A DNA stretch of 48,317 bases from an uncultured Spartobacteria bacterium (GCA_903933715.1 CAIZLD010000039.1:1-48317); one strand, 5' to 3'. Positions 21,095 to 46,637 are shown, counted from the first letter of the stretch. Translations and numbers: made by a program. The notes: generated by a model not told the origin, from the sequence alone.

Positions 21095-21171
21095 GGAGTC
21101 TTAGCTCAATCGGTTAGAGCGCCGCCCTGTCACGGCGGAGGTTGCGGGTTCGAGCCCCGTAGACTCCGCCA
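21095..21171 (+). tRNA. tRNA-Asp (GUC)
   Basis: A full cloverleaf is visible: acceptor GGAGTCT paired with AGACTCC, D-arm GCTC/GAGC, anticodon stem CCGCC/GGCGG around the loop CTGTCAC (anticodon GTC), T-arm GCGGG-TTCGAGC-CCCGT, discriminator G and an encoded CCA (21,169-21,171). It is the insertion target of the element that begins immediately downstream with an integrase gene. Confidence 0.97.
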
Positions 21172-21190
21172 CTCTAAAGCCTAGAGTGGC
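21168..21190. other. 9-bp inverted repeat at tRNA 3' end, candidate attL core
   Basis: GCCACTCTA (21,168-21,176) and TAGAGTGGC (21,182-21,190) are perfect inverted repeats around AAGCC, and the left arm includes the tRNA's own CCA. The stem could end tRNA transcription or form part of the recombination site. There is no U-tract, which slightly favours the second idea. No second copy of the tRNA-Asp end was found in the window. Confidence 0.5.
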
Positions 21191-21266
21191 AAACACTTAC
21201 GAGGAAAACAGCCCATCCTCGTCATGCAAAAAATCATGCAACGCTTTGACACCCCCGCGATGTCAT

Positions 21267-22454
21267 ATGCATCGCGTTCAGATCGTCGGCCATGGGGATG
21301 CCGAGGTGAAGATCTACCCCATTCGGCGCAAAGCCACCAAGTATCGCTTCTTCCAGATCGCTTGGTATGAACTGGGCGTGCGGCGCACCAAGACGCTCGC
21401 AGACCCGCTCAAAGCCAAGGCCTACGCGCAGCAAGTCCATGTCTCGCTGCTGAATCTGGGACGGGCCGTCGAGGTTACTCCACAGGATGTGCAGATGCTC
21501 CGGGATGCCGAGACCATCGCAGCCAAGTTCGGCGTCTCCCTCCCCTTCGCCATCCGGGAATGGGCCGACACCAAGGAAATGCTTCGCGGCACCCCGATGC
21601 TTGCTCAGGCGAAAGGACTGGCGGATGCGCTCCGGGACGTTTCTGCAATCAACGCGCAAACCGCCGCGAAAGAATATATTCGCATCAAAGAGCGAGCCCG
21701 ACATTCCAAGCGCCACACTGAAACAGTGCGAGCCCTGCTGGACACCTTTGGCCGAAAATTCCCTGACCAGATGCTTCACGAGCTTACCGTCAAAGACCTG
21801 CAACGCTTCATCGACGGCATCAAAGGAGCCCCGCGCACGAAAAACAATTTCATGTCCTGCCTGAAGACCTTCTTCATCTGGGCGCAAAAGCAGTCCTACG
21901 TTCGGCAGGATCGTCAAACGGCAGCCAACGCCCTCAACAAAGAACGCGAGGCATATCTCAGTCCGGAAATTTTTACGCCGGAAGAAATGCGCAAAATCCT
22001 CACCCACTGCGAACCGGCAATGATCCCCTACATGACCATCGGCGCGTTCGCTGGACTGCGAAGCGCAGAAATCGCTCGGCTCGATTGGTCCGCCATCGAC
22101 TTCGATTCCGGCTACATCAAAGTCTCGGGCGAGATCACAAAAACGCAACAGCGCCGCCTCGTCCCCATACTACCCAGCCTGCGAGCCTGGCTGTTTCCGC
22201 ACAAGAAAGCTTCCGGCTCGGTGACATTCTTCACTTTCCGCAAAGGCATCCACCGCTGCACCAAAGCCGCAGGAATCGCGTGGAAAGCCAACGCCCTGCG
22301 CCACAGCTTCGGAAGCTACCGACTGGCAGAGGTGCAGGATGCTGCGAAGGTCAGCCTCGAAATGGGCAACTCCCCGGCCATGCTCTTCAAACATTACCGG
22401 GAACTGGTCACGCCCGAACAGGCCAAGCAGTGGTTCGAGATCATGCCGCTGTAG
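21267..22454 (+). CDS. tyrosine recombinase (integrase), right element
   Basis: This integrase of about 395 residues should insert the right-hand element at tRNA-Asp. A short N-terminal DNA-binding region is followed by a SAM-like core-binding domain (residues ~130-220) and a catalytic domain with Arg in FAGLRSAEIARL, the ALRHSFGSYR box (His and second Arg) and the final FKHYREL (His and Tyr). The ATG at 21,267 is preferred; an in-frame GTG at 21,186 lies inside the inverted repeat and would add 27 polar residues. It is followed by an AlpA-like gene, a common integrase/excisionase pairing. It is not closely similar to the left element's integrase. Confidence 0.9.
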   Translation: MHRVQIVGHGDAEVKIYPIRRKATKYRFFQIAWYELGVRRTKTLADPLKAKAYAQQVHVSLLNLGRAVEVTPQDVQMLRDAETIAAKFGVSLPFAIREWADTKEMLRGTPMLAQAKGLADALRDVSAINAQTAAKEYIRIKERARHSKRHTETVRALLDTFGRKFPDQMLHELTVKDLQRFIDGIKGAPRTKNNFMSCLKTFFIWAQKQSYVRQDRQTAANALNKEREAYLSPEIFTPEEMRKILTHCEPAMIPYMTIGAFAGLRSAEIARLDWSAIDFDSGYIKVSGEITKTQQRRLVPILPSLRAWLFPHKKASGSVTFFTFRKGIHRCTKAAGIAWKANALRHSFGSYRLAEVQDAAKVSLEMGNSPAMLFKHYRELVTPEQAKQWFEIMPL

Positions 22455-23727: not shown

Positions 23728-23749
23728 CCTCAACCCGGGAAAGAAAGAA

Positions 23750-28956: not shown

Positions 28957-28989
28957 TTACACTGCGATTTCTCCGCTCATCAGGCGCGG
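28957..28989 (-). pseudogene. scar of a second hsdS 3' end
   Basis: Read leftward, these bases encode PRLMSGEIAV and a stop, nearly the same ending as the intact HsdS (QLMSGEIPV). The bases after the stop (AAATCG) also match those after the real hsdS stop. It is too short to be a gene. It suggests that a former hsdS end was duplicated or exchanged, leaving the small Cys-rich gene between the two copies. Confidence 0.65.
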
Positions 28990-28992
28990 AGT

Positions 28993-29229: not shown

Positions 29230-29236
29230 GACGATT

Positions 29237-30367
29237 TCAGACAGGTATCTCCCCGCTCATCAACTGTGGCAACAGCAGGTCGCGGGCGGCGCGGAGCTTT
29301 TGGTTTTGGTAGTGAAGATTCAGCAATTGGTCAAAGACTGGCTTCAGAGAATCGTTGAAAGACTCCAGCAGACGCGATGTGGGCATAACCATCGGATAGG
29401 AACGGATAATTTGCTGATTTATGTTATTTTGTGCCGCGCCCATCGAAAGTCCGACCAGTTTATCCTTGTTCTCGCGAAAAAAAAGGAACGCGTGAATAAA
29501 GCTATATTTTGGTTTTCTCGGGATAATTGCACAGCATGCCTGATTTGATGATGCAGGACTCGCTATAATTCCAATCTGACCGATTGTCGCTCCATACATT
29601 GCGACCAGCAAGGTTCGCTCCGGAAACAGTTTCGCAGCGGATTTCTTCAATGCGTCTTCTGTAATCTTCTCCTCCGTGTCGGCCACAAATCCGTTGAGTA
29701 GTTCACCTGTTTTTACCCAAAGAATTTCACCCGTGAAGAAATCAGGATTCGTCCTACTTGGAGTACCACCGGATGCGGTGTCGTAGAAATCAGATACGTT
29801 TCCACGTTCCCACCCATCCGGCACACCATTGATTATGTGGGTATGCTCGTGGCCGGGGAAGCGGAGGCGGACAAACCATTCCCGGTAAAGCAGCCGTGCT
29901 GATTCTTCCAGCAACGCCATCCGACGCCAGTTGTTCTCGATCAGATCATCGTAAGCGGAAAGAATCTCAGCAATGCTCTCTTGGATCTTTGTGTCTGGAA
30001 CTCGGACTTTAACCTCATGAAGAACATTCCTATCGACGCCAGGTACCGCAGCTTTATCGCTCTGATACCCCCTCAAAACATTCTTCAAAAAGTAAGCTGC
30101 AAACTTTGGATGAGTGTCTTTAAAATCGACCACGTAAAGCGCCGTGTTAAGCGGCCAGTAGTCTTCATCAAGGTAGAATACCTCGCCGATGGTGCCATAT
30201 CGGCCTGTAACTACACCAGGAGCCTTTGCTTTCGATTCGTTGTGGTGGCCGGTAATTCCCGATGACGAGACAACAGGGACATCACCGTCATGGCGCAAAT
30301 CACTTGGCAAGTCGTGACCACGCTTCAGGGTGAAAAGATCGCCAAGCCTACAACTTCGCCACCTCAT
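29237..30367 (-). CDS. hsdS: type I restriction-modification specificity subunit
   Basis: This 376-residue subunit recognises the split DNA target for HsdM and HsdR. Two target-recognition domains (residues ~1-120 and ~185-320) are each followed by a conserved helical region: IQESIAEILSAYDDLIENN with ALLEESARLLYREWF, and the C-terminal repeat ending LRAARDLLLPQLMSGEI. The second TRD carries GGTPSRTNPDFFTGEILWVK, common in HsdS. Its ATG overlaps the hsdM stop by four bases. Base composition is more AT-rich than hsdM, as is usual for exchanged specificity genes. Confidence 0.94.
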   Translation of the reverse strand: MRWRSCRLGDLFTLKRGHDLPSDLRHDGDVPVVSSSGITGHHNESKAKAPGVVTGRYGTIGEVFYLDEDYWPLNTALYVVDFKDTHPKFAAYFLKNVLRGYQSDKAAVPGVDRNVLHEVKVRVPDTKIQESIAEILSAYDDLIENNWRRMALLEESARLLYREWFVRLRFPGHEHTHIINGVPDGWERGNVSDFYDTASGGTPSRTNPDFFTGEILWVKTGELLNGFVADTEEKITEDALKKSAAKLFPERTLLVAMYGATIGQIGIIASPASSNQACCAIIPRKPKYSFIHAFLFFRENKDKLVGLSMGAAQNNINQQIIRSYPMVMPTSRLLESFNDSLKPVFDQLLNLHYQNQKLRAARDLLLPQLMSGEIPV

Positions 30368-32520
30368 ATCCCCATCTCCTCAAAGTTTTCCTGAATCTTC
30401 CCTGCCAGATCAACGGCCTCCTTGTTCAAATCCGCCAACTCGATGTGAATATCCCGTAGCGTCTGCTCAAAATCAAAATCTTCGTCCACATCCGGCGGGG
30501 CAACGCCGACGTAGCGTCCGGGCGTAAGACTCCAGTCGGCAGCCTCGATTTCCGCACGGGGGACGGCTTTGCAAAGGCCCGCGACGGCCTGAAACTCGGC
30601 ATTGGGGAAGCGATCTTGGAGCCAGACGATCTGACGATGGAAATAGACAGCCTCTTTGAGTTGTTCGACGGCGGCTTTTCGCTCCTCTTCAAGCTGCTTG
30701 AGGCGTTTTGAAGCGGTGCGGCGGTCGTAAAATTTTGCGGCAGCGGTCTCGGTTGCCAGCCCGGCGGCGGCTTGGGCCAGAGTCTCGGCTAACTGCCCGG
30801 CCCGCGCGGCGAGCTTGTAGAGCGCGTCCACCTGTTTGACCAACCCCTTGATCTGTTCTGCCATCGAATCGAATGTTTTGCGATAGGCAAGCTGCGCGCC
30901 GCAGGTTGAGGGTATGAGCGCGGCGGTTTCCTTGTGGAAGCATTCCAGATCGCGTTTTAATACTTTCCGGTCGGACTTATACGCCGCAGCTGCCTCTTGC
31001 CACTCCGTGAGTGCTTCGGTGAGCGGCGTCTTTTCGGCGTCCGGGAGCAGGAGTTTTCCAGCAACCTGAGCGAATGCCTGCAATTGTTCCCGAGACTCAT
31101 TGAGCGTCGTATCAAAGGCATCAAGGGCAACGGGAATCGCCGCGCACTCCTCGGAGATACTCCCAAAGTAGCTTTCCACCAACCCGAGGAACCGTTCGCG
31201 TTGGCCACGGTAAAGCCAGACGATGGCGGTCAGGTTTTTCAACTGCTCCGGCGAGAAGTCAAAAACCTTGCGCGTGACCTTCCGGTAAATATTGCGCGCA
31301 TCAAGCATCAGCACCGTGTCCCGCTGCTCGGCTGGCTTGCCTTTATCAAAGAACCAGAGTTCGCACGGCACGGTGCGGGTGTAGAAGAAGTTCGAGCGGA
31401 TGGAGATCATCACATCCACGTCGCCGGTTTCGACGATCCGGCGGCGCACTTCGGCTTCGCCGTGCCCGGCGCTGGAAGCTTGCGACGACATGACGAAGCC
31501 CGCGCGGCCCTTCGGCCCGAGGTAGCTGTGGAAGTAAGAAATCCAAAGATAGTTGCCGTTGGAGACTTTCTTGGCTTTGTTTACTCCGGGCAGGCCGAAC
31601 GGCAACCGGGGGTCGTCTTTGATCTTCTCCGCATCCACCTGATCCACGTTGAAGGGAGGATTGGCCATGCCAAAGTCGCAATTTCCCCACAGCAGGCGTC
31701 CGTCGGGCAAACGGTGGACGTCGTCGTAAAACGTATTGGCCTCGCGAATGTCCCCTTCCAGCCCATGCACGGCGAGGTTCATCTTGGCGAGTCGGATGGT
31801 CGTGGCGGTTTTTTCCTGACCGTAAAAAGTCACCCGCTTCATGGTGTCCTGACCCTGATCCTCAATGAAATGGCTGGACTGGACAAACATCCCGCCGGAG
31901 CCGCAGGCGAGGTCGGTGACCACACCGTGGTCCGGCTCAATGACGTTGACGATGGTCTGCACGAGCGAGGGCGGCGTGAAAAACTCGCCGTTGTCCTGCG
32001 CTCCCTGCATGGCGAACTTCATGAGGAAGTATTCGTAAATGCGCCCGAAAACATCGCCGGACGCCGAGCGCAATGATTCGCGATTGAAGATTTTGAGCAG
32101 GTCTTCCAAGACCGAGCGCTCGAAGATGGAGAAGTCCCTAGGCAGAACGCCGCGTAACGGCTCGAAGGAATCCTCGATAGCCGTCATCGCATCAATGAGC
32201 GCCATCCCGAGATCGGTTTCCTTCGGCGTCGCCAGAATCTTTTCGTACCGGGCAGCCTCGGGCAAATACAGACAGCGCCGCTTCACATAGTCAGCGGCGA
32301 TGGGCGTGCGCTTCGGCGTGCGCCCGGATTTCTGATCATACTCGATCTCGCGAGTTGCATCTTCAAAGCGGTTGGCGGCGTGGCGCAGGAAAATGACGCC
32401 GAGCACAGGCATGCAATACTCGGATGAGGTGAGCTTGGAATTGGCCCGGAGATTGTCCGCCGCCTCCCATAGGTCCTTTTCCAGTTTTTCAATATTTCCG
32501 AGTGATCCGTTGGTGGTCAT
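30364..32520 (-). CDS. hsdM: type I restriction-modification DNA N6-adenine methyltransferase
   Basis: This 718-residue subunit methylates adenine in the HsdS target using SAM. The N-terminal helical HsdM_N domain contains FLRHAANRFED, and the gate to the catalytic domain has NGEFFTPPSLVQ. The SAM site is DLACGSGGMF (residues 203-212) and the catalytic motif is NPPF (287-290). After residue ~480 there is an extra ~230-residue C-terminal extension rich in helices and charged repeats, found in longer HsdM variants. TAGGT precedes the start. Only 19 bases separate it from the subtilase gene upstream, so cotranscription with that pair is likely. Confidence 0.96.
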   Translation of the reverse strand: MTTNGSLGNIEKLEKDLWEAADNLRANSKLTSSEYCMPVLGVIFLRHAANRFEDATREIEYDQKSGRTPKRTPIAADYVKRRCLYLPEAARYEKILATPKETDLGMALIDAMTAIEDSFEPLRGVLPRDFSIFERSVLEDLLKIFNRESLRSASGDVFGRIYEYFLMKFAMQGAQDNGEFFTPPSLVQTIVNVIEPDHGVVTDLACGSGGMFVQSSHFIEDQGQDTMKRVTFYGQEKTATTIRLAKMNLAVHGLEGDIREANTFYDDVHRLPDGRLLWGNCDFGMANPPFNVDQVDAEKIKDDPRLPFGLPGVNKAKKVSNGNYLWISYFHSYLGPKGRAGFVMSSQASSAGHGEAEVRRRIVETGDVDVMISIRSNFFYTRTVPCELWFFDKGKPAEQRDTVLMLDARNIYRKVTRKVFDFSPEQLKNLTAIVWLYRGQRERFLGLVESYFGSISEECAAIPVALDAFDTTLNESREQLQAFAQVAGKLLLPDAEKTPLTEALTEWQEAAAAYKSDRKVLKRDLECFHKETAALIPSTCGAQLAYRKTFDSMAEQIKGLVKQVDALYKLAARAGQLAETLAQAAAGLATETAAAKFYDRRTASKRLKQLEEERKAAVEQLKEAVYFHRQIVWLQDRFPNAEFQAVAGLCKAVPRAEIEAADWSLTPGRYVGVAPPDVDEDFDFEQTLRDIHIELADLNKEAVDLAGKIQENFEEMGI

Positions 32521-32539
32521 GTTTACCTAAATGGTTGTT

Positions 32540-34843
32540 CTATCGTGTAGCACGGATTCGAACACCTTCCCTGACTTGGAGGTTCTGCGTAATCCAACCA
32601 GAGCGATTCATCATCTGCACAACTTCGTCGTAAACCGGGCGCTGCTTATCTGGATCGCGAATGGTTGCGATAAGGGCGACAGGTTGACTTCCAGGATTTG
32701 ATGAGGGCTTTCTGGAGCTCATTTCAAGCGTGATACGCCAGGTGTCGCGCGAGTCAATCCGGGAAAAACATTTCCGGAAAACTTTGACGGGTGACCACTT
32801 GAAACCGTGTTCGATCTGGTTCTTCTCGAAAAGCTCGCTGTAATCCTTTGGATATGGAATGATCTTCCGACCGCTGTAGTCTTCAACTCCTTCGGCGTCG
32901 ATCCAGCATGTGCCGAGCGAGGCATCGACGTTAACCTGGCTATAAGATGCACCGTCGAAAGGATCGACAGGGGGATCGTAAACAAGAGTGAGGATGATCT
33001 CGCCGAACGCCTTGTCATTCTTATGCAGGCAGGGGGGCACAGGGAAGTCCGCCTTGTGGAAATGCCGCTTCGAGTATGGGAGGTCAATGTCGAACACAAG
33101 GGTTGCCTCCCAAGGACGACAGCGCAGAATGTCCTCAACGGTTGGGGGTTTGCCAAATCCGCGATAGGGTAGATCCTGTGCGGTGATCTCTGGAGAATTT
33201 AGCACTGCCGAGTGAATCACAAAGGCTTTCAGAAGGTGCCGCGAGGGAGGTTCTTCCAATGCCGCCGCGAGTTGGGCTGCAGTCAGTGCGACCGAGGGTG
33301 CAGCAAAACTGGTTCCAATCGTCTCGGCTATGTTTCCCGACCCATCAATCGAAAGCACTCCCATCTGCGAGTATTGCAGATTTCGTGTCGAATTTCCTCC
33401 AAAATGCGTCACGTCCGGCTTCGGAACAAATGCCGCACCAGGCTCTTTTCGAGAAAACGGGGATGGTTCGCCGGGGGCAGCACAGGCGTTGTTTCGGGAC
33501 AGGTGCGCAACAGAGCCTACGGTTAGGGCGCGCAGAGAGTCCGCCGGTGCGACAATCCGATCACTGTCGCTGAGGTCAGGTCGTCTCCACGGATGGAGCG
33601 GAGCGTTATTGAAATTCCCAGCGCTGTTTACGATCATCACTTTGAACTCGTCCTGAAGAGCATCCAGAGCGATTGCGAACTCCGAGAATCTATCATTCTG
33701 GCAAAGTCGTTTGGAGTTGATCGACATATTCCAAATCCGGGGCTCGGGATGGCGCTCGAAAGCGCTCCGAAGGAGATCAACAAGATCGTCCTCAGTCACG
33801 GAGCCGCTTGACGGAAGCGCCACGAAATCGACGATTTTTGCCCGGCCAGAAGGAAAACCATCGTGTCCGTGGTTGATTGCTCGACCATTGATAATCAAAC
33901 CAGCTACCAGACTGCCATGGGTGTTGTCCTGGTCAATGCGGGGGACCTCGCTTTCGTCGCGAGCGACAACCCACGCTTGAAGACGGGCATTGTTCGGATC
34001 TGTGCCAGTGTCGATGATCCCGACCAGCGGATACTCGGTATCCACACTCGGAGAAGGGATGTCATCGGCAGACATCGGCTGAACGGGTGTCGATTGAGCG
34101 CTTACCGTGAACTGTTCAAACACATCAACACTCTGCGTTCCAACAAACGCGGCCAAATCAGAAATAATCGCCCCGTTTTCTGCGATCCCCCCGTCACCGG
34201 CGACATGAAAGCGGTATACACGAAGTTGCTGCCCATACCGAAGAGCGTCTGGAACCTCAACTCCAGCCTTTTGAGCCAATTTGCGCAGTTCCGTTAGGAT
34301 GCGGTCATTCAGCTGCGGGTCCCTGTGATTAAAAAGGCGAAGTTTCAGGGTTGATAAGTGATGTTCTGAAAGAAATGCCTTCAAGTCAGAGGAAGTCCAG
34401 TTCCCAAGGGCGTCTTGAGCGGAAAACGGCTGTATCGAAAGTATTTTGGAAACATCGTTCTGCATCGTGAATGCCGTGCTTCTGCTAATCGTAGCCTCCA
34501 GGCGTTTAAGTGAGTCGGGACGAACGCTAATAAGCAACTGACCAAAATTTTCGGAACCGATGATGGGGCAAGTTCGGTCACTCAGCAATGCGTCGGGGCG
34601 ATGACTCTTGGCAAGTGCTTCCTCTCGGAGAGTTATCCGGGCTACGGCTGGAAGATTTGACGCGGTAAAAATGCGATCAAAATGCGCATGAACCTTGGAA
34701 AGATCAGTGAGCAGTGCGTCTCGCGTCTGATCAAAAACGTCGGTAAAATCCTTTGGTGGGCCACCGCCCCCACGCGGGGGACGCAAATCTTCTTGGTGTG
34801 GTATTACAACCTTGATCGGCAGATGCTCTCTTGATTCAGGCAT
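32540..34843 (-). CDS. ietS: subtilisin-like serine protease (IetS-like)
   Basis: This 767-residue S8-family protease has its catalytic triad at D278 (GIIDTGTD), H309 (NTHGSLVAG) and S512 (GTSFAAPS), with the oxyanion Asn at N410 (NSAGN). A ~260-residue N-terminal region and a ~240-residue C-terminal domain flank it; no signal peptide is seen, so it should act in the cytoplasm. Its start overlaps the stop of the upstream AAA+ gene (TAATG). An AAA+ ATPase plus cytosolic subtilase is the composition of IetAS, first described in plasmid incompatibility and later reported as anti-phage. The family name rests on this pairing. Confidence 0.88.
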   Translation of the reverse strand: MPESREHLPIKVVIPHQEDLRPPRGGGGPPKDFTDVFDQTRDALLTDLSKVHAHFDRIFTASNLPAVARITLREEALAKSHRPDALLSDRTCPIIGSENFGQLLISVRPDSLKRLEATISRSTAFTMQNDVSKILSIQPFSAQDALGNWTSSDLKAFLSEHHLSTLKLRLFNHRDPQLNDRILTELRKLAQKAGVEVPDALRYGQQLRVYRFHVAGDGGIAENGAIISDLAAFVGTQSVDVFEQFTVSAQSTPVQPMSADDIPSPSVDTEYPLVGIIDTGTDPNNARLQAWVVARDESEVPRIDQDNTHGSLVAGLIINGRAINHGHDGFPSGRAKIVDFVALPSSGSVTEDDLVDLLRSAFERHPEPRIWNMSINSKRLCQNDRFSEFAIALDALQDEFKVMIVNSAGNFNNAPLHPWRRPDLSDSDRIVAPADSLRALTVGSVAHLSRNNACAAPGEPSPFSRKEPGAAFVPKPDVTHFGGNSTRNLQYSQMGVLSIDGSGNIAETIGTSFAAPSVALTAAQLAAALEEPPSRHLLKAFVIHSAVLNSPEITAQDLPYRGFGKPPTVEDILRCRPWEATLVFDIDLPYSKRHFHKADFPVPPCLHKNDKAFGEIILTLVYDPPVDPFDGASYSQVNVDASLGTCWIDAEGVEDYSGRKIIPYPKDYSELFEKNQIEHGFKWSPVKVFRKCFSRIDSRDTWRITLEMSSRKPSSNPGSQPVALIATIRDPDKQRPVYDEVVQMMNRSGWITQNLQVREGVRIRATR

Positions 34844-35958
34844 TATTCGCTCCTTGTTTTTAGCTTCCTTGAAATCGTTGCGGTTGAAGTGTTAAGCATT
34901 TCAGCCAATCGCTTGCCATTAAAAAATACAGGATTGAGCGCTTGAATGGCGCGTAAATCCTCCGGCGTCAAGTCGCCTGGAGAAACATCGCGTTTAATGC
35001 GGATTGCAATGAGCCGCCAGATCAAGCGCTCTTGGTCAATCGTCTTCTGCTTCCGAATCACGGCGTCTCGTATCGCATCCTGCGCCAGGGTTTTGATATC
35101 AGAACCCGTCACTGTTTCAGCAAGGACGGAAAGAGCGGAGAGATCAAGGTTGGTGGCGTAATCACCAAAAAACAACCTCATCATCTGATCGCGTTCATTT
35201 GGCCCCGGCGGACTTAGTGGAATCTTGAAAGTAAATCGTCTCCAAATTGCAGGATCGAGCAGGTGCTCGTGATTTGTAGCCGCAAGTAGAACTGTTTGCG
35301 GGTTCATATTATCAAGATTCTGCAAAAGGCTCACGACCACCCTTTTCAGTTCACCAAGCTCCTGCTGGTCATCACGCAGCTTGGCAAAGGCATCTAATTC
35401 ATCCAGAAAAAGAATACAGCGCCTGGCAGATACGTGATCAAACAAGGTGCGGAGGTTTTTTGATGTGCTTCCAAGATAGGAAGAGATAAGCGTGTCCGCA
35501 CGGGCGACAACCAGCGGCATATTCAACCGCCCGGCGATATATCGGGCGAGCTGCGTCTTTCCTGTCCCCGGAGGGCCATAAGTAATTAGCGATGGGGAAC
35601 CGCCAACTCCATGAGCCTCCAATTCATCAGAATTCTTAACGAAGGAAATGAATTCTTCGACACGCCTCGATGTCCCCCCGTCAAGCACCACGGGAAACCC
35701 TGCCTCAGTTGGAATCTCTTCATCTGCGAGCGCGAGCCGTGACTCACCATCGACCGGAAGGCGGGGGCGTGAGCCGATTCCACTCGTTTGGACAGTCGAT
35801 CCAGATGCATCCAACAGCTCCTTCAGGCGCAGGACATCTTTTTTATCCCCTTCCGCCTCTAATTTATCGATAAGCTGGTTCAGGTAGGCCGCGACCCTCA
35901 CGGCGTCCTTGCGGAGGCCCCATTCGGCGATCTTTGTGATTTCTCTAATATGTTCCAT
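34843..35958 (-). CDS. ietA: AAA+ ATPase (IetA-like), partner of subtilase
   Basis: This 371-residue protein has a helical N-terminal region (to ~90), an AAA+ core with Walker A GPPGTGKT (128-135), Walker B LFLDELDA (about 183-190), sensor-1 Asn in ATNH (229) and an Arg finger pair (WRRF, 240-241), and a C-terminal helical lid. The last ~30 residues look like a helix-turn-helix (GKRLAEMLNTSTATISRKLK). It probably controls or feeds the downstream protease. It is the first gene of the leftward defence cluster and diverges from the helix-turn-helix gene at 36,192. Confidence 0.88.
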   Translation of the reverse strand: MEHIREITKIAEWGLRKDAVRVAAYLNQLIDKLEAEGDKKDVLRLKELLDASGSTVQTSGIGSRPRLPVDGESRLALADEEIPTEAGFPVVLDGGTSRRVEEFISFVKNSDELEAHGVGGSPSLITYGPPGTGKTQLARYIAGRLNMPLVVARADTLISSYLGSTSKNLRTLFDHVSARRCILFLDELDAFAKLRDDQQELGELKRVVVSLLQNLDNMNPQTVLLAATNHEHLLDPAIWRRFTFKIPLSPPGPNERDQMMRLFFGDYATNLDLSALSVLAETVTGSDIKTLAQDAIRDAVIRKQKTIDQERLIWRLIAIRIKRDVSPGDLTPEDLRAIQALNPVFFNGKRLAEMLNTSTATISRKLKTRSE

Positions 35959-37941: not shown

Positions 37942-38760
37942 ATGATTCTCGTCAGACGTGAAAGCGCCAGTCACTGGTATTTGCAGGATCGCACCCCGTT
38001 CCACGAAGTAGTGCGGGCAGACGGTAACGGGATGCGCCCGGTCACCTTGCGGGACGCCCGCAAAGTCCGGGCATACCCGAGCGTGACCAATGTGTTGTCG
38101 GTCTTGGCGAAGCCCGGGCTTGATGCATGGAAACAAGAGCAGGCGATCCTTGCAGCGCTCACGCTCCCCCGCAGCGAGGGCGAAACGGAAGACGCCTTCG
38201 CCCGCCGGGTGGTAGGCGACATGGGCGAGCAAGTCAGTAAAGCCGCTGATTTGGGCAGCGCCATCCATGCGGCATGCGAGGTGTATGCGCAGTCGGCGGC
38301 ACTTCCCGAGAGCCAGGATGTCGCCCGCCTGTTCCAGCCGGTACGGGAATGGTTCGACGCCGAGGTGGAGCGGATTGCGATGGTCGAAACCGTGGTGGCC
38401 CACCACGAATTCGGCTACGCGGGCACCGTGGACCTTGTTGCCAAGCTTCGCTGCACTGGAGATTGGGCCGTCGTGGATTTCAAGACGCAGCGCATCAAGG
38501 CCGATACCAAGGGGCAGCCCAAGCCCAACTTCTACGAGACGTGGCCGCTGCAATTGGAAGCCTACCGCCAAGCCATTCTGCACAGCGGACAGGGCAAACA
38601 GCCGCGTGACGTTGTTTCCCTAGTCATCAATTCGGAATCGCCCATGCCGGTGATCCCGAGGATCTGGCCGCGCGAGGAATACGACGGCTACTGGCAGGCG
38701 TTCCTCAACGCCCGGAACCTGTGGGTCTGGATCAAGGGGTATTGCCCCATCGAATTATGA
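37942..38760 (+). CDS. PD-(D/E)XK nuclease, RecB/Cas4-like
   Basis: This 272-residue nuclease shows the full motif series of the RecB/Cas4 branch: H109 in LGSAIHAACE, D164 in GTVDLV, D179-x-K181 in VVDFKTQ, and the late Q204...Y208 in LQLEAYRQA. It may resect DNA ends for recombination or process replication intermediates. GAGGAG lies about ten bases before the ATG at 37,942. Its stop overlaps the helicase start (ATGA). No iron-sulfur Cys cluster is seen. Confidence 0.82.
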   Translation: MILVRRESASHWYLQDRTPFHEVVRADGNGMRPVTLRDARKVRAYPSVTNVLSVLAKPGLDAWKQEQAILAALTLPRSEGETEDAFARRVVGDMGEQVSKAADLGSAIHAACEVYAQSAALPESQDVARLFQPVREWFDAEVERIAMVETVVAHHEFGYAGTVDLVAKLRCTGDWAVVDFKTQRIKADTKGQPKPNFYETWPLQLEAYRQAILHSGQGKQPRDVVSLVINSESPMPVIPRIWPREEYDGYWQAFLNARNLWVWIKGYCPIEL

Positions 38761-39992
38761 TCGACGACGGCACCACCTTTGAACGGCTGGTCGAGGCAGG
38801 CGACAATGTCTGCCTGACCGGCCCTGGCGGGACGGGCAAAAGTTTTCGCACCCGCAAGTTGATCGCCAGCGACCCGGACTGCTTCGCCGTGACCGCATCC
38901 ACCGGAATCGCCGCGATCAATGTCGGCGGGCTGACGTTGCACCGCTGGAGCGGGATGATGCTTGGGCCACAGAACGGCGAGAGCGACGAGGAATGCCTCG
39001 CCCATCTGATGCATGACAAACGCTTCAGTGTCCGGGCCGGTTTCGACCGGATCAGAAACTGCCGGACGCTGGTGATCGACGAAGTCTCGATGCTCAACGG
39101 GCGCACCCTGGACTTTCTTGATTTCCTCTGCCGACGTCTCCGGGCCGAGAACCGGCCCTTCGGCGGCATCCAGATGATTGTCACGGGCGACTTCCTTCAA
39201 CTGCCGCCTGTGAAAAAAGACCCGAGTGCCCCGTATGATTGGGCATTCCAATCCCGCGCATGGACCGAGGCGGATTTCAAGGTGGTTCACCTTACCAAGA
39301 TTCACCGCCAAAATGACGTCCACTTTATTGGCGCGCTCTCGGATTTCCGTTTCGGGTGCGTGGAAGGCGCGAATGCGCGTTTGCTACGCGCTAGGGTCGC
39401 GCGGTTCCCGGACGCGAACCTCACCCGGCTTTTCACGCACAACGCCCAGGTGGACAAGTGGAACCACTATCGGCTCGACGCCATTGAAAGCGAGCCGCGC
39501 TTTTTCGATGCCGAACTCAACGGTCCCGAGGCCCAACAACAGTTCCTGATCGATAACCTGCTCACGCCGCAGCGACTGGAACTAAAACGCGGGGCACGAG
39601 TGATGTTCACGGTCAATAGCGCCGAGGGTGGCTACGTCAATGGACAGACCGGCACAGTGCTGGACTTTGGATGTGATTCCATTTCGGTGGAATCCGACTG
39701 CGGACGCGACCTCACCGTGGAACCGTTCACCTGGAGCTATGACTCCCGCGATCCCCGCAGCGCTACGTTCACCCAGTTTCCCCTGCGGCTTTCCTACGCG
39801 GTCACCATCCATAAAGCGCAGGGGTTGACGCTCGACTCAGCCTACATCGACGTGCGTGCCGCCCGCGAGCCGGGACAGGCTTACGTGGCTCTCTCGCGAG
39901 TGCGGGCGCTGGACGGTCTGCACCTGAAGGATTGGTTCGCGGGCGTGTTCGTGAGCCGCGCCGCAGTTGACTTCTACCGCATTGCATCATGA
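38757..39992 (+). CDS. Pif1/RecD-like SF1B DNA helicase
   Basis: This 411-residue helicase has Walker A GPGGTGKS (22-29), motif Ia (TASTGIAAINVGG), Walker B LVIDEVSML (about 105-113), motif III (IVTGDFLQLPP), and late motifs with AVTIHKAQGLTLD and YVALSRV. This is the Pif1/RecD2 signature of a 5'-3' helicase. The start overlaps the nuclease stop as ATGA, and its stop overlaps the polymerase start by four bases, so all three are coupled. It probably unwinds DNA for the element's own replication. Confidence 0.92.
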   Translation: MIDDGTTFERLVEAGDNVCLTGPGGTGKSFRTRKLIASDPDCFAVTASTGIAAINVGGLTLHRWSGMMLGPQNGESDEECLAHLMHDKRFSVRAGFDRIRNCRTLVIDEVSMLNGRTLDFLDFLCRRLRAENRPFGGIQMIVTGDFLQLPPVKKDPSAPYDWAFQSRAWTEADFKVVHLTKIHRQNDVHFIGALSDFRFGCVEGANARLLRARVARFPDANLTRLFTHNAQVDKWNHYRLDAIESEPRFFDAELNGPEAQQQFLIDNLLTPQRLELKRGARVMFTVNSAEGGYVNGQTGTVLDFGCDSISVESDCGRDLTVEPFTWSYDSRDPRSATFTQFPLRLSYAVTIHKAQGLTLDSAYIDVRAAREPGQAYVALSRVRALDGLHLKDWFAGVFVSRAAVDFYRIAS

Positions 39993-42900
39993 GCTTTTCA
40001 ATTCCCGCTGACATCAATACATGGGATCGTCTCCGCACGGTCGAGTTCTACCACCGGGAGTTGGGCTGGGCTGTGCATGCCCTCTACTCTCCCCATAAAG
40101 GCCAGGATCATGAACGCGGGAAAAAACCGCTCGCCAAGGGCTGGCGCTCACATACCGCCGCTGAAATAACACCCGATTATCTCCACGAACATTTTGCCAA
40201 CGGCTCCAGCCACAACATCGGCGTCGTTGTTCGCGGCCCGTTCGTTCATGTCGATCTCGATTCGAAGCCCGACCGGGGCGACTCCGTGAGGGCATGGCTG
40301 GCCTCGCAACCTCAGCTTTCCAGCGTTCCCCGCGAACGCACTGGGGGCGGCGCGCATCTGACTTTCATCTGCCGCGATCTGCCGCAGGTTGTCGCGCAAT
40401 CCAAGAAAGCGATCACTGCCCAGATCAACGACGCCGTTTCCTGTGAGCTTTACACCGACGGCCTCAACCTCGTCGTCTCCCCTTCGGTTCACAAAAGCGG
40501 CACCCGCTATGAATGGGAGGTAACCGGCACTATTCCTGAGGTTCCGTGGGAGCAGATTCGCCAGTGGTTTGGGTTTGAGGAACCCGAAGCCCGCAAACGT
40601 GGACGGCCCTCAAAGGAAAAACCGTGGTGGGCGCGTTTCAAAGGTTCCCTGCATACTCTGGATGCCGTGGCGCTCTTTCGCGAGGCAGGGATGCTCGGCG
40701 ATGCCATCGCCCCCGATGAAGGGAAATGGGCTGTGCGGTGCCCATGGGAACATGAGCACTCCGACGGCCAAGGAGGCAACGGGCGAAAATCCGACACGGT
40801 CATTTTCCAAGGGCAAGCAGCTGACTGCCCGCCCGGGTTCAAATGCCTGCATGCCCACTGCGCCGAACGGGAATTGAAGGATGTTCTCGTATTTTTTGAT
40901 GAGCGCACGCCCGGCATCGTGGATCGGCATTGCCGCGAGATGCGCGTTTGGGAAGAGGGACAGGCAGCAAAGGACGGTCGCCCGCGGGTCATCCTGCCGG
41001 AAATGGGAAGGCCCGATTCCGAGTTCGCTGCTGAGATGGGCCAGCATCTTTCCCCCCGCGATATCTGGTTCAGTAAAGCAGACACAGTGGTATCCGTGGC
41101 TTTTCGGCGGTTCAGCGAGAAGATCAACTCTCTTTGCTTTCTTCCAGTCCAGCCGGTCGAAGCCTGTACTTCGGCGGAACAGTTCGTGGAAACCGGCGTG
41201 CTGCGCGAAGACAAAGCCACGGGCGATCTGGCGTTCGTCAAGCACACCATGACTCGAGAGTGTGCGTCCAAGCTGATCGCAGCCCCGCAGTTCCGCCGCA
41301 CCCTTCCCGAGATTATCCGCATCTTGGATATTCCACTCCCCATTCGGCAGTCCGGCGGGCGGATCGTTTTCCCGGAGCCCGGCTACGATCCACGTTTCCG
41401 CAGTTACCTTGATCCCTCCGCGCCGGTGATTCGTCCGGTTCCATTCGAGCGCGCCGTGGAGTTGATTTCTGAAGTCCATGCCGATTTTGGCTGGAAGGAC
41501 AATCAAAGCCTCGTTCATGCATTGGCCAGCATCATCACGCCATTTTGTCGTGGACTGATGGGGTGGGACGCCCGCTTTCCGCTCTGGCATTACAGCGGAA
41601 ACCGGCCCCGCGCCGGGAAGGATTATCTCGCCGGGGTTCGCCAGATTTTATACGAGGGCCGCACCTGCGAGGACGCGCCATTGGAGCGCGAAAGCGAGGA
41701 AACGCGCAAACGTATCACGGCTGCACTCATGGCTGGACGGCGCTCCATGCACTTCGCCAACTGCCAGGGGCATATCCAGGATGCGGCGTTCATCGGAGCC
41801 ATCACCAGCAAGACATTCGCTGCACGCAACCTCGGCAGCACCGAGGCGAAGGCGGATTTGGTTCTGCCCAATGAAATCGAGTTCAGCATTTCGGCCAACG
41901 TGGGCCTCACGTTCCGCGAGGATGTGGAGCCGCGCACGCGCCGAATCAGCCTGGTGTTTTTCGAGGAAAATCCCAACGGGCGCATTTTCTCCAAGCCCGA
42001 TCTCCACGGCTGGGTGCTGGCGCATCGCTCCGAACTGCTCAGCGCCGTGGGCGCTCTGGTGAAACGCTGGATGGATGCGGGCTGCCCCGATGGCCCATCG
42101 CCTTTCAATACTGCGCCCGAATGGGGCCGGGTGGTCGGCGGCATCATGCACGCCTGCGGTTTGGGCGACCCGTGTCTCCCCCACATTGAGGATGGAGCCA
42201 TCGGCGGCGATCTGCTCGAAAAAGCCATGAGGGCGCTCTATCGCCTCGGCTTTGAAAATTACCCGGATACCTGGGTGGAAAAGGGCGATCTATTCCGGCT
42301 GGTGGCGACCTCCGATGACGATGATCTGATGTTTTTTGGCTCCTTCGGCGATGAAACGGGGGCTCGTGAATCCAAAAAACGCATGGGCCGATTCATGGGG
42401 CAATACCGAGGCCGCGAATTGGCGGGCATCGTGATGGAAATCGACACCCGTGCGAAAGGCGAACGTCAGCGCGTGCGTTTCAGCAATTTCGATGCTTCAA
42501 CACGGCATCCCAATCAAATCCTGTTCTCCATTTTTGGAAACAGTGGAAACAACGGAAACACCACAGGTTGTATGAAAGCTCCCGACGAAAAATTCGGAGA
42601 GAAAAATAAAAAAAGAGAAGAATTAAAAAGGGAGAGAATAGAGAGAGGGGGCAGTATTTCCACTGTTTCCGTTGTTTCCACAATCACTGACCGTTCGGTG
42701 TTCCCCGACATCGCGGAGGCGATTGAGTCGGCTGGCTCGGTCGCTCTCGATTTGGAGACGTTTGGGGCTCGCAAATCAGACGCGTTGAATCCCTGGCGGG
42801 GCGATATCCGGCTCCTCACGCTCAAAGTTGAAAATGCCGACACCTGGATCATTGATCTGCAAGCCACCGGCTACGATTTGGGGCCGTTATCAAAAGCCCT

Positions 42901-44389
42901 CGAATCCAGCGCCGTTATCGCCCACAACGCCAAGTTCGATCTGCTCTGGTTGGCGGTGAAATGTGGGTGCCACCCGAAACGCATTTTTTGCACGCTCACC
43001 GCCGCACGCCTTCTCAGCGCCGGGACAAAGCCGGGCAACAATCTCGATCAGTGCCTCCGACGCTACCTTGGCATCCTGCCTGCCTCCGACCACAGCACTT
43101 CCGATTGGGGTGGGATGCTGCTCACCCCCGACCAACTCGCCTACGCCGCACGGGATGTTCAACATCTCCATGCTCTGCAAGACAAGCTGAAGGATGAAGT
43201 TGCCGGTGCGAAGCTGGATGCGGTTTGTGAAATGGAGATGGCGCTCGTGCCAGTGGTGGTTGCGATGGAAGAAGCAGGTTTCGCGGTCGACGTCCAGAAA
43301 CTCCAGGAACTCCGTGACGGCGCACGGGATACCGCCCGGCGCATGAGCGATCAGCTTCGGGATGTGCTGGGCAATCGGGGGATCAATCCCGCCAGCCCCG
43401 ACCAGCTCAAAACAGCCCTCGCCCGAGCCGGTATCACCGTCCCCAACACGAACGAGGAAACGCTCAAAGCCGCCAACGACGGGCGCATCATTCCGGCTAT
43501 TCTTGAATTCCGTGGCGCGGAAAAGAGCGCCCAGCAGGCCGAGACGCTTCTTGAGTGTGTGGAGATGGATGGTCGCATTCACGGTCGTTTCGAGCCGACC
43601 GGGACGGACACGGGCCGATTTGCCAGCAAGTCGCCCAATCTCCAGAACATCGGACGGGGTTCGCTCCGCGACTGCTTCGTGGCACCGGAGGGACACGCGC
43701 TGATTGTTGCGGACTACTCACAGATTGAATTGCGTGCTGCTGCCGCCATCGCTGAGGAAACAAAAATGATTGAGGCATACAACCGGAGCGCTGACTTGCA
43801 CCGGCTGACGGCCTCCACTGTGCTTGGAAAAAATGTGGACGATGTGACCAAGGAGGATCGGCAGATGGCCAAGGCAGTAAACTTCGGATTGCTTTACGGG
43901 CAATCGGCCAAGGGACTGGTCCGCTACGCCGCCACTTCCTATGGTGTGACGATTTCAGAGGAAGATGCACAGTCGATTCGTTCTGCGTTCTTCCGATCCT
44001 ACGGCCATCTGCGCCAGTGGCACGGTGAAAGCCATAATCAAGCGGAACGGGGCGTGAAGGAAATTCGCACGGCGCTCGGTCGCCGCCGGTTGATTCCGCC
44101 CGAGGCAACGGCGTGGGAGCGGTTCACGGCATTGGTGAATACGCCAGTCCAGGGTGGTTGCGCCGATGTGATGAAACGCGCGATCCTGCTGCTGGCCGAG
44201 AGATTGCCCCAAGGGGCGCGGATCGTCAGCACGGTTCACGATGAATTGATCTTGGAGGCACCGGAATCCGATGCGCCTGCTGCACTTGCGCTCGTTGAAT
44301 CCGCGATGATTGAAGCCATGACCACACTCTTTCCAACGGTGCCGGTCGAGGTCGAAGCCAAGATTTGCAAACGATGGGGGGAGAAATAA
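39989..44389 (+). CDS. PrimPol - P-loop-like - exonuclease - family A DNA polymerase fusion
   Basis: In this 1,466-residue chain, residues 1-200 form an archaeo-eukaryotic primase/polymerase: D89/D91 in FVHVDLD, GGGAHLTF at ~119 and H168 in SPSVHKSG. A Cys/His cluster follows (CPWEHEH ~250; CLHAHC ~285). The middle (about 380-840) holds a Walker A-like loop, GNRPRAGKD (~537), with Asp where Ser/Thr is expected. After a low-complexity linker (~850-890) comes a 3'-5' exonuclease (D921, E923; HNAKFD; YAARDVQ) and then polymerase motif A (VADYSQIELR, D1242), motif B (RQMAKAVNFGLLYGQ) and motif C (VHDE, D1418). It likely primes and copies the element. Confidence 0.92.
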   Translation: MSFSIPADINTWDRLRTVEFYHRELGWAVHALYSPHKGQDHERGKKPLAKGWRSHTAAEITPDYLHEHFANGSSHNIGVVVRGPFVHVDLDSKPDRGDSVRAWLASQPQLSSVPRERTGGGAHLTFICRDLPQVVAQSKKAITAQINDAVSCELYTDGLNLVVSPSVHKSGTRYEWEVTGTIPEVPWEQIRQWFGFEEPEARKRGRPSKEKPWWARFKGSLHTLDAVALFREAGMLGDAIAPDEGKWAVRCPWEHEHSDGQGGNGRKSDTVIFQGQAADCPPGFKCLHAHCAERELKDVLVFFDERTPGIVDRHCREMRVWEEGQAAKDGRPRVILPEMGRPDSEFAAEMGQHLSPRDIWFSKADTVVSVAFRRFSEKINSLCFLPVQPVEACTSAEQFVETGVLREDKATGDLAFVKHTMTRECASKLIAAPQFRRTLPEIIRILDIPLPIRQSGGRIVFPEPGYDPRFRSYLDPSAPVIRPVPFERAVELISEVHADFGWKDNQSLVHALASIITPFCRGLMGWDARFPLWHYSGNRPRAGKDYLAGVRQILYEGRTCEDAPLERESEETRKRITAALMAGRRSMHFANCQGHIQDAAFIGAITSKTFAARNLGSTEAKADLVLPNEIEFSISANVGLTFREDVEPRTRRISLVFFEENPNGRIFSKPDLHGWVLAHRSELLSAVGALVKRWMDAGCPDGPSPFNTAPEWGRVVGGIMHACGLGDPCLPHIEDGAIGGDLLEKAMRALYRLGFENYPDTWVEKGDLFRLVATSDDDDLMFFGSFGDETGARESKKRMGRFMGQYRGRELAGIVMEIDTRAKGERQRVRFSNFDASTRHPNQILFSIFGNSGNNGNTTGCMKAPDEKFGEKNKKREELKRERIERGGSISTVSVVSTITDRSVFPDIAEAIESAGSVALDLETFGARKSDALNPWRGDIRLLTLKVENADTWIIDLQATGYDLGPLSKALESSAVIAHNAKFDLLWLAVKCGCHPKRIFCTLTAARLLSAGTKPGNNLDQCLRRYLGILPASDHSTSDWGGMLLTPDQLAYAARDVQHLHALQDKLKDEVAGAKLDAVCEMEMALVPVVVAMEEAGFAVDVQKLQELRDGARDTARRMSDQLRDVLGNRGINPASPDQLKTALARAGITVPNTNEETLKAANDGRIIPAILEFRGAEKSAQQAETLLECVEMDGRIHGRFEPTGTDTGRFASKSPNLQNIGRGSLRDCFVAPEGHALIVADYSQIELRAAAAIAEETKMIEAYNRSADLHRLTASTVLGKNVDDVTKEDRQMAKAVNFGLLYGQSAKGLVRYAATSYGVTISEEDAQSIRSAFFRSYGHLRQWHGESHNQAERGVKEIRTALGRRRLIPPEATAWERFTALVNTPVQGGCADVMKRAILLLAERLPQGARIVSTVHDELILEAPESDAPAALALVESAMIEAMTTLFPTVPVEVEAKICKRWGEK
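42536..42681. repeat. 9-bp iterated inverted repeat at the PrimPol/PolA junction
   Basis: GGAAACA starts three 9-bp units at 42,536, 42,545 and 42,554. A mirrored array of TTTCC units lies at 42,657-42,681. The 18-mer GTGGAAACAACGGAAACA (42,543-42,560) and its exact reverse complement (42,664-42,681) flank a purine-rich spacer with an A7 run (42,608-42,614). The array sits exactly between the primase/P-loop and exonuclease/polymerase halves of the fused gene. Confidence 0.85.
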
Positions 44390-46235: not shown

Positions 46236-46637
46236 ATGAAGATCGAAAAGAGTATCCCAGTTCCCCGCCAATGGGCCATGGGCCTGACGACAGCCATGAG
46301 TCGCCTCGAAGTGGGGGATTCACTCCATTTCGATGGGCCGCTCTCATCGCCGCATGTGATTGCGGATCGTTTAGGCATTACGGTCGTTTGTAGGACTGAG
46401 AAAAATGGCTGCCGGGTCTGGCGTGTTGCCGGGGAAACCGCCCGGGCTTTAGCTCAGCTCCCGCGCCGGGGAAGTATGAATGCCGCAATCAAAAGAATCG
46501 CCCGGGAAATTCTCGATTTGGAAACGCTCAAAACCCGAAAGATGGACAGTCTTGATTTCCACGAGCTGGCGGTCTGGCAAATCCGCAAGGCGCTCGAGGC
46601 CGCTTACAACGCAGGGCGCGAGTCACTGAACCAGTAA
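46236..46637 (+). CDS. hypothetical protein with DUF6900-like C-terminus
   Basis: This 133-residue protein has an N-terminal ~65 residues (MKIEKSIPVPRQWAMGLTTA, then VWRVA) that look like a small beta-rich domain seen in phage proteins. The C-terminal ~55 residues (IAREILDLETLKTRKMDSLD, then FHELAVWQIRKALEAAYNAG) closely resemble the DUF6900 domain of phage and plasmid proteins. The domain name is from memory of the pattern and no function is known. It starts three bases after the previous stop. Confidence 0.7.
   Translation: MKIEKSIPVPRQWAMGLTTAMSRLEVGDSLHFDGPLSSPHVIADRLGITVVCRTEKNGCRVWRVAGETARALAQLPRRGSMNAAIKRIAREILDLETLKTRKMDSLDFHELAVWQIRKALEAAYNAGRESLNQ

What the first reader, a model, noticed from the sequence alone, without database searches (positions are those of the whole stretch)
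39989..44389. Single-chain PrimPol, degenerate P-loop, exonuclease and family A polymerase
Motifs for an archaeo-eukaryotic primase (D89/D91, H168), a Zn-type Cys cluster, a Walker A-like loop, a DEDD exonuclease and all three PolA motifs occur in one open frame of 1,466 residues. PrimPol-helicase and exonuclease-PolA proteins are each known; I do not know this three-part order as a described family. It would let a mobile element prime and copy DNA with one protein plus the adjacent Pif1-like helicase.
Basis: partly seen in the sequence, partly recalled or inferred. Interest (0 to 1): 0.85.

Follow-up and report, generated by a model that had tools for sequence, protein, structure and literature searches.

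The report
One-gene phage replication machine
A prophage in an uncultured bacterium carries one gene that joins a DNA primase, a ring-helicase domain and a proofreading DNA polymerase in a single protein, and a sequence that looks like its own replication start site lies inside that gene; related genes in other bacteria show the same layout.

Summary
Window 39989-44389 (+) is one open frame of 1,466 aa: an archaeo-eukaryotic Prim-Pol, a Cys/His zinc-type cluster, a superfamily-3 (SF3) AAA+ helicase-fold domain, a DEDD 3'-5' exonuclease and family A polymerase. It is not a frameshift or chimaera: three other complete frames and two contig-truncated ones in other genomes carry the fusion (one complete frame has a different primase domain). 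It sits in a tRNA-Asp integrated tailed prophage whose structural genes lie on a second contig.

Two features go beyond the finding. (1) The P-loop belongs to a clade (99/95) where Walker A GK[TSGN] became GKD and the Walker-B Asp was lost; coding constraint is strong (dN/dS about 0.04). (2) The DNA encoding the helicase-exonuclease linker (42536-42679) holds inverted arrays of three 9-bp iterons around a 90-bp A+T-rich spacer, unique in the 2.8-Mb genome. Such period-9 arrays lie at the 3' end of 12 of 41 relatives' helicase regions, fused or not, and in none of 8,200 shuffled regions. This is the SaPI-type origin position, here enclosed in the coding sequence.

Single-chain primase-helicase-PolA proteins are known in kind (Plasmodium Prex, Pyrovirus polyprotein; phiAsp2 Pas55, found here). 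I found no description of this combination: a new variant.

The parts
39989..44389 (+). Fused gene: Prim-Pol / zinc cluster / SF3 AAA+ helicase-fold domain / DEDD exonuclease / family A DNA polymerase, 1,466 aa
   Evidence: One open frame; Pfam; three other complete frames and two contig-truncated ones carry the fusion in other genomes
40052..40546 (+). Archaeo-eukaryotic Prim-Pol domain (aa 22-186); invariant D89, D91, E153, H168
   Evidence: PF09250 E 5.5e-14; conserved residues; fold best matched by pRN1 ORF904 prim-pol Z 6.4 and NrS-1 Z 5.8, low-confidence model
40736..40861 (+). Zinc-type Cys/His cluster RCPWEHEH...FKCLHAHC (aa 250-291)
   Evidence: Invariant in six diverged relatives
40976..42538 (+). 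SF3/D5-like AAA+ helicase-fold domain (aa 330-850)
   Evidence: Profile relatives in phages and prophages; fold match to SF3 primase-helicases, Z up to 11.5
41597..41623 (+). Walker A GNRPRAGKD (aa 537-545), Asp in place of Thr/Ser
   Evidence: GKD in 9 of 9 tree rows of one clade, support 99/95
41747..41764 (+). Walker-B position MHFANC (aa 587-592), acidic residue missing
   Evidence: (A/S)N in all GKD members; D, E or Q followed by N, D or E in the others
42536..42562 (+). Left iteron array, 3 x 9 bp: GGAAACAGT GGAAACAAC GGAAACACC
   Evidence: tandem pair found nowhere else in the genome
42563..42652 (.). A+T-rich spacer (90 bp, 61% AT) that overlaps the lowest-GC 60-mer of the whole ORF (28% GC at 42585); candidate DNA unwinding element
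42653..42679 (-). Right iteron array, inverted: AGTATTTCC ACTGTTTCC GTTGTTTCC (reverse complements GGAAATACT, GGAAACAGT, GGAAACAAC)
42680..43201 (+). DEDD 3'-5' exonuclease domain (aa 898-1071)
   Evidence: PF01612 E 3.4e-22
43295..44383 (+). Family A DNA polymerase domain (aa 1103-1465), motifs A, B and C intact
   Evidence: PF00476 E 9.9e-81; nearest solved structures 8jrb and the apicoplast polymerase; tree
38721..39992 (+). Pif1/Dda-like SF1 helicase; its stop overlaps the start of the fused gene (ATGA)
   Evidence: PF05970 E 4e-29, phrog_325 E 2.1e-64; junction sequence; 81% identical in G014
37942..38760 (+). PD-(D/E)XK exonuclease (probable start 37942; ORF from 37879)
   Evidence: PF12705, phrog_298 E 4e-33; 73% identical in G014, 64% in L024
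37200..37928 (+). NGO0469-family phage replication initiation protein (SSB-like)
   Evidence: NCBIfam NF046043 86.6 bits, cut-off 75; conserved in G014 and L024
44365..44973 (+). Conserved protein of unknown function downstream, overlapping the fused gene's end
   Evidence: 32-33% identical homologue in the same place in G014, 31% in G172
21095..21171 (+). tRNA-Asp(gtc), integration site
   Evidence: ARAGORN
21149..21173 (+). attL: 25-bp tRNA 3' end, repeated exactly at G000:C22:34452-34476 (attR)
21186..22454 (+). Tyrosine integrase of the element
   Evidence: PF00589 E 1.1e-10

Best explanation
The gene encodes a single-chain replicase-initiator of a tailed prophage, with its own replication origin inside the coding sequence. 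Proposed mechanism: (1) the SF3 AAA+ domain with its C-terminal part binds the two inverted iteron arrays (42536-42562 and 42653-42679) and opens the A+T-rich spacer, as SaPI Rep and SCCmec Cch2 do at origins just downstream of their genes. (2) The N-terminal Prim-Pol makes primers de novo on the exposed strand, helped by the zinc cluster. (3) The exonuclease-PolA half, tethered by a flexible linker that is the translated origin, extends them with proofreading. (4) The ring domain and/or the coupled Pif1/Dda-like helicase drive the fork, with the SSB-like and PD-(D/E)XK proteins as accessories. Shown here: domain content, fusion in several genomes, purifying selection, prophage context, conserved repeats and their uniqueness. 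Inferred: origin function, DNA binding, priming, unwinding and extension. The GKD/no-Walker-B-Asp site is read, by inference only, as moving the metal-binding acid from Walker B to Walker A rather than as a dead site.
For: Pfam and motif evidence for all catalytic modules. SF3 primase-helicase fold for the middle, prim-pol fold for the N-terminus. Fusion conserved in G110, G092 and G014, partly in G172 and G009. dN/dS 0.036 over the helicase domain between G014 and G009 (dN 0.009, dS 0.257). Inverted period-9 iterons around an A+T-rich spacer in the linkers of the window, G014, G110 and G172, weaker by eye in G092. Across 41 SF3-helicase regions, 12 have such arrays at period 9, none at periods 7, 8 or 10-15, and none in 200 dinucleotide shuffles of each region (the period-6 count there, 17, is uninformative because two mismatches in six are allowed). 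In unfused relatives the arrays lie at or just after the gene's 3' end (L006, L007, L111, L068, L100, L102), the place of SaPI and Cch2 origins (PMC7581432). Synonymous resampling of the window linker never reproduces the arrays (0 of 3,000), and the tandem pair is unique in the genome. Phage context: integrase and tRNA-Asp attL, attR plus terminase, portal, head protease, major head, tape measure and tail fibre on contig C22.
Against: No biochemical data. Walker B lacks its acidic residue, so the ring may not hydrolyse nucleotide. The structure models are of low to middling confidence (mean pLDDT 57 and 55; six and seven sequences). 29 of 41 SF3-helicase regions show no such array at this stringency, so the arrays are not universal; G092's right arm is degenerate. 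Contigs C39 and C22 are joined by the att match and gene content only, not by sequence overlap.
Confidence: 0.66

Rival explanations
1. The SF3-like ring has lost ATPase activity and is only an origin-binding and oligomerisation platform. Unwinding is done by the separate Pif1/Dda-like helicase encoded just upstream.
For: Walker-B Asp missing and Walker-A Thr/Ser replaced by Asp in the whole clade. Pif1/Dda gene translationally coupled (ATGA) in the window and present in G014, G009 and L024.
Against: The catalytic Lys of Walker A, the sensor-1 region and the C-terminal Arg residues are kept. Purifying selection is very strong. No Pif1 relative was found near the fused genes of G110 and G092. 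NrS-1 polymerase hydrolyses NTP and unwinds with a non-canonical GKG Walker A (PMC7102993).
Confidence: 0.3
2. The chain is a polyprotein: it is cut in the linker (aa about 851-897) into a primase-helicase and a free exo-PolA, as Plasmodium Prex is.
For: Linker of low similarity (dN 1.13 against about 0.3 in the domains). The exo-PolA relative in G048 is a separate 591-aa protein. Prex and its domains are proteolytically matured (PMC7689252; reference cited in PMC8113025). Pyrovirus has fused and unfused versions.
Against: No protease or cleavage motif was identified. The fusion is kept across distant genomes (about 48% identity). The linker sequence is explained by the iterons it encodes.
Confidence: 0.2
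3. The inverted repeats in the linker are not an origin but an autoregulatory operator, a transcription terminator or a recombination hot spot that lets primase and polymerase modules be swapped.
For: Primase modules are indeed exchanged among relatives (PF09250, BT4734-like, TOPRIM), and inverted repeats could serve regulation.
Against: The primase swap point is at the zinc cluster (aa about 204), not in this linker. Tandem period-9 iterons in opposed arrays around an A+T-rich spacer at the 3' end of SF3 helicases is the SaPI/Cch2 origin layout. Unit sequences differ between relatives while the layout stays.
Confidence: 0.15
4. The gene serves DNA repair, gap filling or defence in a host without its own Pol I, not element replication.
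For: The host lineage lacks a Pol I gene: PF00476 in 4 of 28 relatives, and in this genome only in the fused gene; lack of Pol I in many Verrucomicrobia is published (PMC12926913). Ppol of ICETh2 is not needed for replication of its element (PMC7693054 abstract).
Against: Located in a prophage replication operon with phage-type initiator, nuclease and helicase genes. Carries an iteron array. G092 has a fused copy as well as a chromosomal PolA.
Confidence: 0.1
5. Assembly or sequencing artefact that joins two genes.
For: The genome is a fragmented assembly (77 contigs).
Against: The same fusion in one frame in other, separately assembled genomes at about 48-61% identity.
Confidence: 0.01

Closest known systems
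Prex (plastid replication-repair enzyme) of Plasmodium and Toxoplasma
   Same: One polypeptide with primase, helicase, 3'-5' exonuclease and PolA in that order (PMC8113025). The PolA half of our protein groups with apicoplast polymerase, PDB 8jrb and cyanobacterial plasmid PolA, apart from the phylum's chromosomal Pol I (100/100).
   Different: From general knowledge, Prex has a TOPRIM primase and a DnaB/Twinkle-type helicase and is nuclear-encoded. Ours has an archaeo-eukaryotic Prim-Pol, an SF3 ring domain and a phage setting, with iterons in the gene.
Pyrovirus (TOSV/OS3173) ORF36 polyprotein, source of 3173 Pol
   Same: Viral single chain: N-terminal region with primase/helicase-like motifs and DUF927, then exo and PolA. 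Neighbours are a PD-(D/E)XK nuclease and a helicase (PMC7689252).
   Different: N-terminal part described as DUF927/COG5519, with no Prim-Pol reported. I could not retrieve the sequence, so sequence relation of the N-terminal halves and presence of iterons were not tested.
Actinoplanes phage phiAsp2 Pas55 (YP_024841.1)
   Same: 1,415 aa single chain with a homologous ATPase module (31% identity) and exo-PolA.
   Different: Primase-type domain is DUF3854 (TOPRIM-like); Walker A GKN with intact Walker-B DE; no period-9 array found.
GP55 of lactococcal phage 1706
   Same: Shown to be a four-in-one replicase: helicase, AEP primase, polymerase, 3'-5' exonuclease (PMC12205980).
   Different: Family B polymerase and a helicase-AEP-PolB order; not homologous in its polymerase.
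NrS-1 and pRN1 ORF904 Prim-Pol-helicases
   Same: Prim-Pol plus SF3 ring helicase in one chain; best structural matches of the N-terminal model, and NrS-1 among those of the middle.
   Different: No exonuclease or PolA; the Prim-Pol itself is the replicase.
SCCmec CCPol-MP-Cch2 and SaPI Rep systems
   Same: SF3 or D5/MCM-like initiator helicase with an iteron origin directly downstream of its gene; CCPol is a family A polymerase (PMC7581432).
   Different: Separate proteins; CCPol lacks the exonuclease; origin outside the coding sequence.
TV-Pol fused to D5-like helicase (Sputnik V13)
   Same: A family-A-related polymerase fused to an SF3/D5 helicase (PMC2579912).
   Different: TV-Pol is N-terminal and minimal; no AEP or exonuclease in the same chain.
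Lambda O gene with ori-lambda
   Same: Iterons and an A+T-rich region inside the initiator gene (PMC7466680).
   Different: O is only an initiator; here the gene also encodes primase, ring and polymerase.

Membership tests
PF09250 Prim-Pol (archaeo-eukaryotic primase superfamily) | Profile match above curated cut-off | tested here: met
   53.3 bits, cut-off 22.8
PF09250 Prim-Pol (archaeo-eukaryotic primase superfamily) | Conserved acidic pair, further acid and His of the active site | tested here: met
   D89, D91, E153, H168 invariant in six relatives; H123 is not conserved (Arg in L026)
PF09250 Prim-Pol (archaeo-eukaryotic primase superfamily) | Prim-pol fold | tested here: inconclusive
   Top entries are pRN1 and NrS-1 prim-pols, but Z only 6.4 on a pLDDT-57 model
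SF3 / D5-like AAA+ helicase | SF3 ring-helicase fold | tested here: met
   Z 11.5-9.4 to AsfvPrimPol, SaPI5, Cch, D5/E5, NrS-1, E1
SF3 / D5-like AAA+ helicase | Canonical Walker A GK[ST] and acidic Walker B | tested here: not met
   GKD and FAN, clade-wide; I therefore call it SF3-fold, not a proven helicase
Family A DNA polymerase with DEDD proofreading | Profile, motifs A/B/C and DEDD residues | tested here: met
3173/Prex-type PolA clade | Groups with apicoplast polymerase and mobile PolA apart from bacterial Pol I | tested here: met
   100/100 split from 13 chromosomal PolA; best PDB hits 8jrb and Prex. The 3173 sequence itself was not available
Prex / Pyrovirus polyprotein (as a full-length family) | Homologous primase and helicase modules in the N-terminal half | not tested
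   No sequence of those halves in hand; Pfam finds neither DUF927 nor TOPRIM in the window protein
SaPI/Cch2-type replication origin | Iterons around an A+T-rich region at the 3' end of the SF3 initiator gene | tested here: met
SaPI/Cch2-type replication origin | Initiator binds iterons and replication starts there | not testable with these tools
   Needs DNA-binding and origin-mapping experiments
Tailed prophage (Caudoviricetes) | Integrase and att sites plus terminase, portal and head genes in one element | tested here: met
   the contig join is by att match, not by sequence overlap

The most novel reading that the evidence does not exclude
The gene is a complete one-gene replicon: initiator, primase, ring helicase with a relocated metal-binding acid (Walker-B Asp moved into Walker A), proofreading replicative polymerase and the origin itself, created when an exo-PolA gene was read through the helicase's 3' origin whose 9-bp (three-codon) period kept the frame open. 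It represents a family of such cassettes with exchangeable primase domains.
Probability: 0.33. Interest if true: 0.85.

Novelty: new variant of a known kind. Interest (0 to 1): 0.68.

Why it matters
It would be a proofreading family A replisome core with de novo priming in one chain and its own origin, usable as a test case for one-protein DNA amplification. It also bears on an open question: where the fused primase-helicase-PolA of the malaria apicoplast came from, because its PolA half falls in the same clade while the primase and ring modules differ. The period-9 iteron arrays at the 3' end of many Prim-Pol/SF3 genes give a simple way to find replication origins in uncultured phages. The GKD P-loop clade offers a natural test of whether a P-loop can work with its acid moved.

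Tried and rejected
Frameshift or chimaera: rejected by homologous fusions. Host identity: no named 16S comparison was made; Verrucomicrobiota is inferred from a relative's title and from the lack of Pol I, so it stays an inference. Strict dependence on Pol I-less hosts: not supported, since G092 carries both a fused gene and a chromosomal PolA. First PolA tree was distorted by very long branches and duplicates; rebuilt without them. A run with overlapping groups failed. The search for related loci with PDB 8jrb and with the broad ATPase alignment gave nothing, and a phage search with 8jrb did not bring up Pyrovirus. An unspaced 8-mer repeat score was too weak for G110, G092 and L111 and was replaced by the tandem, inverted period scan. 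Lack of Pfam hits in the middle domain was not taken as absence of a known fold.
Full report
Observation. The ORF 39989-44389 (+) is real and exact: ATG, 1,466 codons, no stop. Pfam finds PF09250 Prim-Pol (aa 22-186), PF01612 exonuclease (898-1071) and PF00476 polymerase (1103-1465), all above cut-off. PHROGs places the C-terminal half in phrog_17 (DNA polymerase, E 2.1e-117) and the middle in phrog_10537 and phrog_29234, both of unknown function.

Is it one protein? Searching 57 relatives and 388 genomes of the phylum gave the same single-frame fusion in G110 (1,493 aa, 49%) and G092 (1,462 aa, 48%). G014 (1,591 aa) is 61% identical from aa 204 to the end but has a different N-terminus. G172 and G009 are cut by contig ends. 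The Prim-Pol half was found in only 3 of 388 genomes, each time in a fused gene. Between G014 and G009, dN/dS over the helicase domain is 0.036. A sequencing error or chimaera is excluded.

Modular primase. In G014 the N-terminus is a BT4734-like AEP domain (PF08800, E 1.7e-22) behind a basic segment that looks like a helix-turn-helix (my reading). The MAG contig JAGKWZ010000089.1 (Verrucomicrobiaceae, L024) has our Prim-Pol and zinc cluster (57% identity) joined to a D5_N/DUF5906 helicase instead; its frame runs off the contig, so any PolA beyond is unknown. G237 and G211 join zinc-finger/TOPRIM-like primases (my reading of the sequences) to the same ATPase clade without PolA. Phage phiAsp2 Pas55 has DUF3854-ATPase-exo-PolA. 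So primase domains are exchanged around a ring-plus-polymerase core.

The middle domain. A model from seven aligned sequences (core pLDDT about 70-80, overall 55) matches SF3 primase-helicases best: AsfvPrimPol Z 11.5, SaPI5 11.1, Cch 9.9, D5/E5 about 9.8, NrS-1 9.7. The N-terminal model (pLDDT 57) matches pRN1 ORF904 (Z 6.4) and NrS-1 (5.8) first; those Z values are modest. The P-loop is GNRPRAGKD. In the tree of 31 ATPase domains the nine GKD members form one clade, 99/95. All of them lack the Walker-B acid (FAN, FSN or ISN), whereas the others keep D, E or, in one case, Q at that position. As this is one clade, the two changes may have happened once; compensation is an inference.

The polymerase half. 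DEDD and PolA motifs are complete. Best solved relatives are 8jrb and the apicoplast Prex polymerase. In a tree with 13 chromosomal Pol I proteins of the phylum, the fused PolA halves, a stand-alone relative (G048, 591 aa), 8jrb, Prex and cyanobacterial plasmid PolA are on one side of a 100/100 branch. The host genome has no other PF00476 protein, and 24 of 28 relatives searched have none, in line with published lack of Pol I in many Verrucomicrobia (PMC12926913).

Where it sits. The element starts at tRNA-Asp (21095-21171) with an integrase, then restriction (Mrr, type I), HipA-like and subtilase/AAA genes, then the replication operon: NGO0469-family protein, PD-(D/E)XK nuclease, Pif1/Dda helicase, fused gene. 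A 25-bp copy of the tRNA end lies at C22:34452. C22:1-34452 carries terminase, portal, head protease, major head protein, tape measure and tail fibre. The two contigs do not overlap in sequence, so the join is probable, not shown. In G110 and G092 the fused gene sits by a tRNA and a recombinase-like gene (my reading of the ORFs), without a Pif1 relative nearby.

Origin inside the gene. The linker DNA between helicase and exonuclease holds GGAAACAGT-GGAAACAAC-GGAAACACC (42536-42562), a 90-bp spacer (61% AT, overlapping the lowest-GC 60-mer of the ORF) and the inverted array (42653-42679). The tandem pair occurs nowhere else in the 2.8-Mb genome. G014, G110 and G172 have the same layout with different 9-bp units; G092 has a degenerate version. 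Scanning 41 SF3-helicase regions from 100 bp before to 600 bp after the domain end, period-9 inverted arrays occur in 12, no arrays at periods 7, 8 or 10-15, none in 8,200 shuffled regions, and none in the gene-internal control windows. In unfused relatives the arrays fall at or just after the stop codon (L006, L007, L111, L068, L100, L102). Synonymous resampling never recreates the window's arrays (0 of 3,000). This is the position and build of SaPI/Cch2 origins (PMC7581432); lambda ori is a precedent for an origin inside an initiator gene (PMC7466680). Nine bp is three codons, so read-through keeps frame; this may be how the fusion arose (inference).

Known or new? Single-chain primase-helicase-polymerases exist: Prex, Pyrovirus polyprotein with PD-(D/E)XK and helicase neighbours, GP55 with PolB. 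Kazlauskas et al. 2018, the AEP survey read here, shows no AEP-PolA fusion in the passages found, and ten full-text searches found none. Only open-access papers were searched, so absence is weak evidence. I rate it a new variant of a known kind.

Noticed in passing
L006:8499-8633, L007:5142-5266, L111:8609-8702, L068:3659-3782, L100:2983-3117, L102:1057-1149: Inverted 9-bp iteron arrays around an A+T-rich spacer lie at the 3' end of unfused Prim-Pol/SF3 helicase genes in phage contigs and bacterial genomes, a likely general origin signature.
   Followed up: yes
L009:655-960 (G014) and L024:9659-10000: A second set of repeats, many copies of GGGGACAT/ATGTCCCC in G014 and GGGAACA/TGTTCCC in L024, lies in the N-terminal linker between an HTH-like segment and the primase domain; possible operator or second origin.
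   Followed up: partly
G000:C18 (L080:7567-9192 and 13329-15824): The same genome has another prophage-like region with a stand-alone SF3-like ATPase (541 aa, Walker A GKS) upstream of portal and head-protease genes.
   Followed up: partly
whole genome G000 and relatives: No chromosomal Pol I (PF00476) in this genome or in 24 of 28 relatives searched.
   Followed up: partly
window 22810-35958: Defence-type cargo near the integrase: Mrr-like endonuclease, type I restriction-modification set, HipA-like kinase, AAA-subtilase pair.
   Followed up: no
G000:C22:16943-18423: AbiEii-type toxin gene with its partner inside the prophage's structural region; 55% identical in G211.
   Followed up: no
window 33922-34012: ARAGORN calls a tRNA-Arg on the + strand inside the subtilase gene of the - strand, probably a false call.
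   Followed up: no
window 46236-46637: DUF6900 protein downstream of the replication operon.
   Followed up: no
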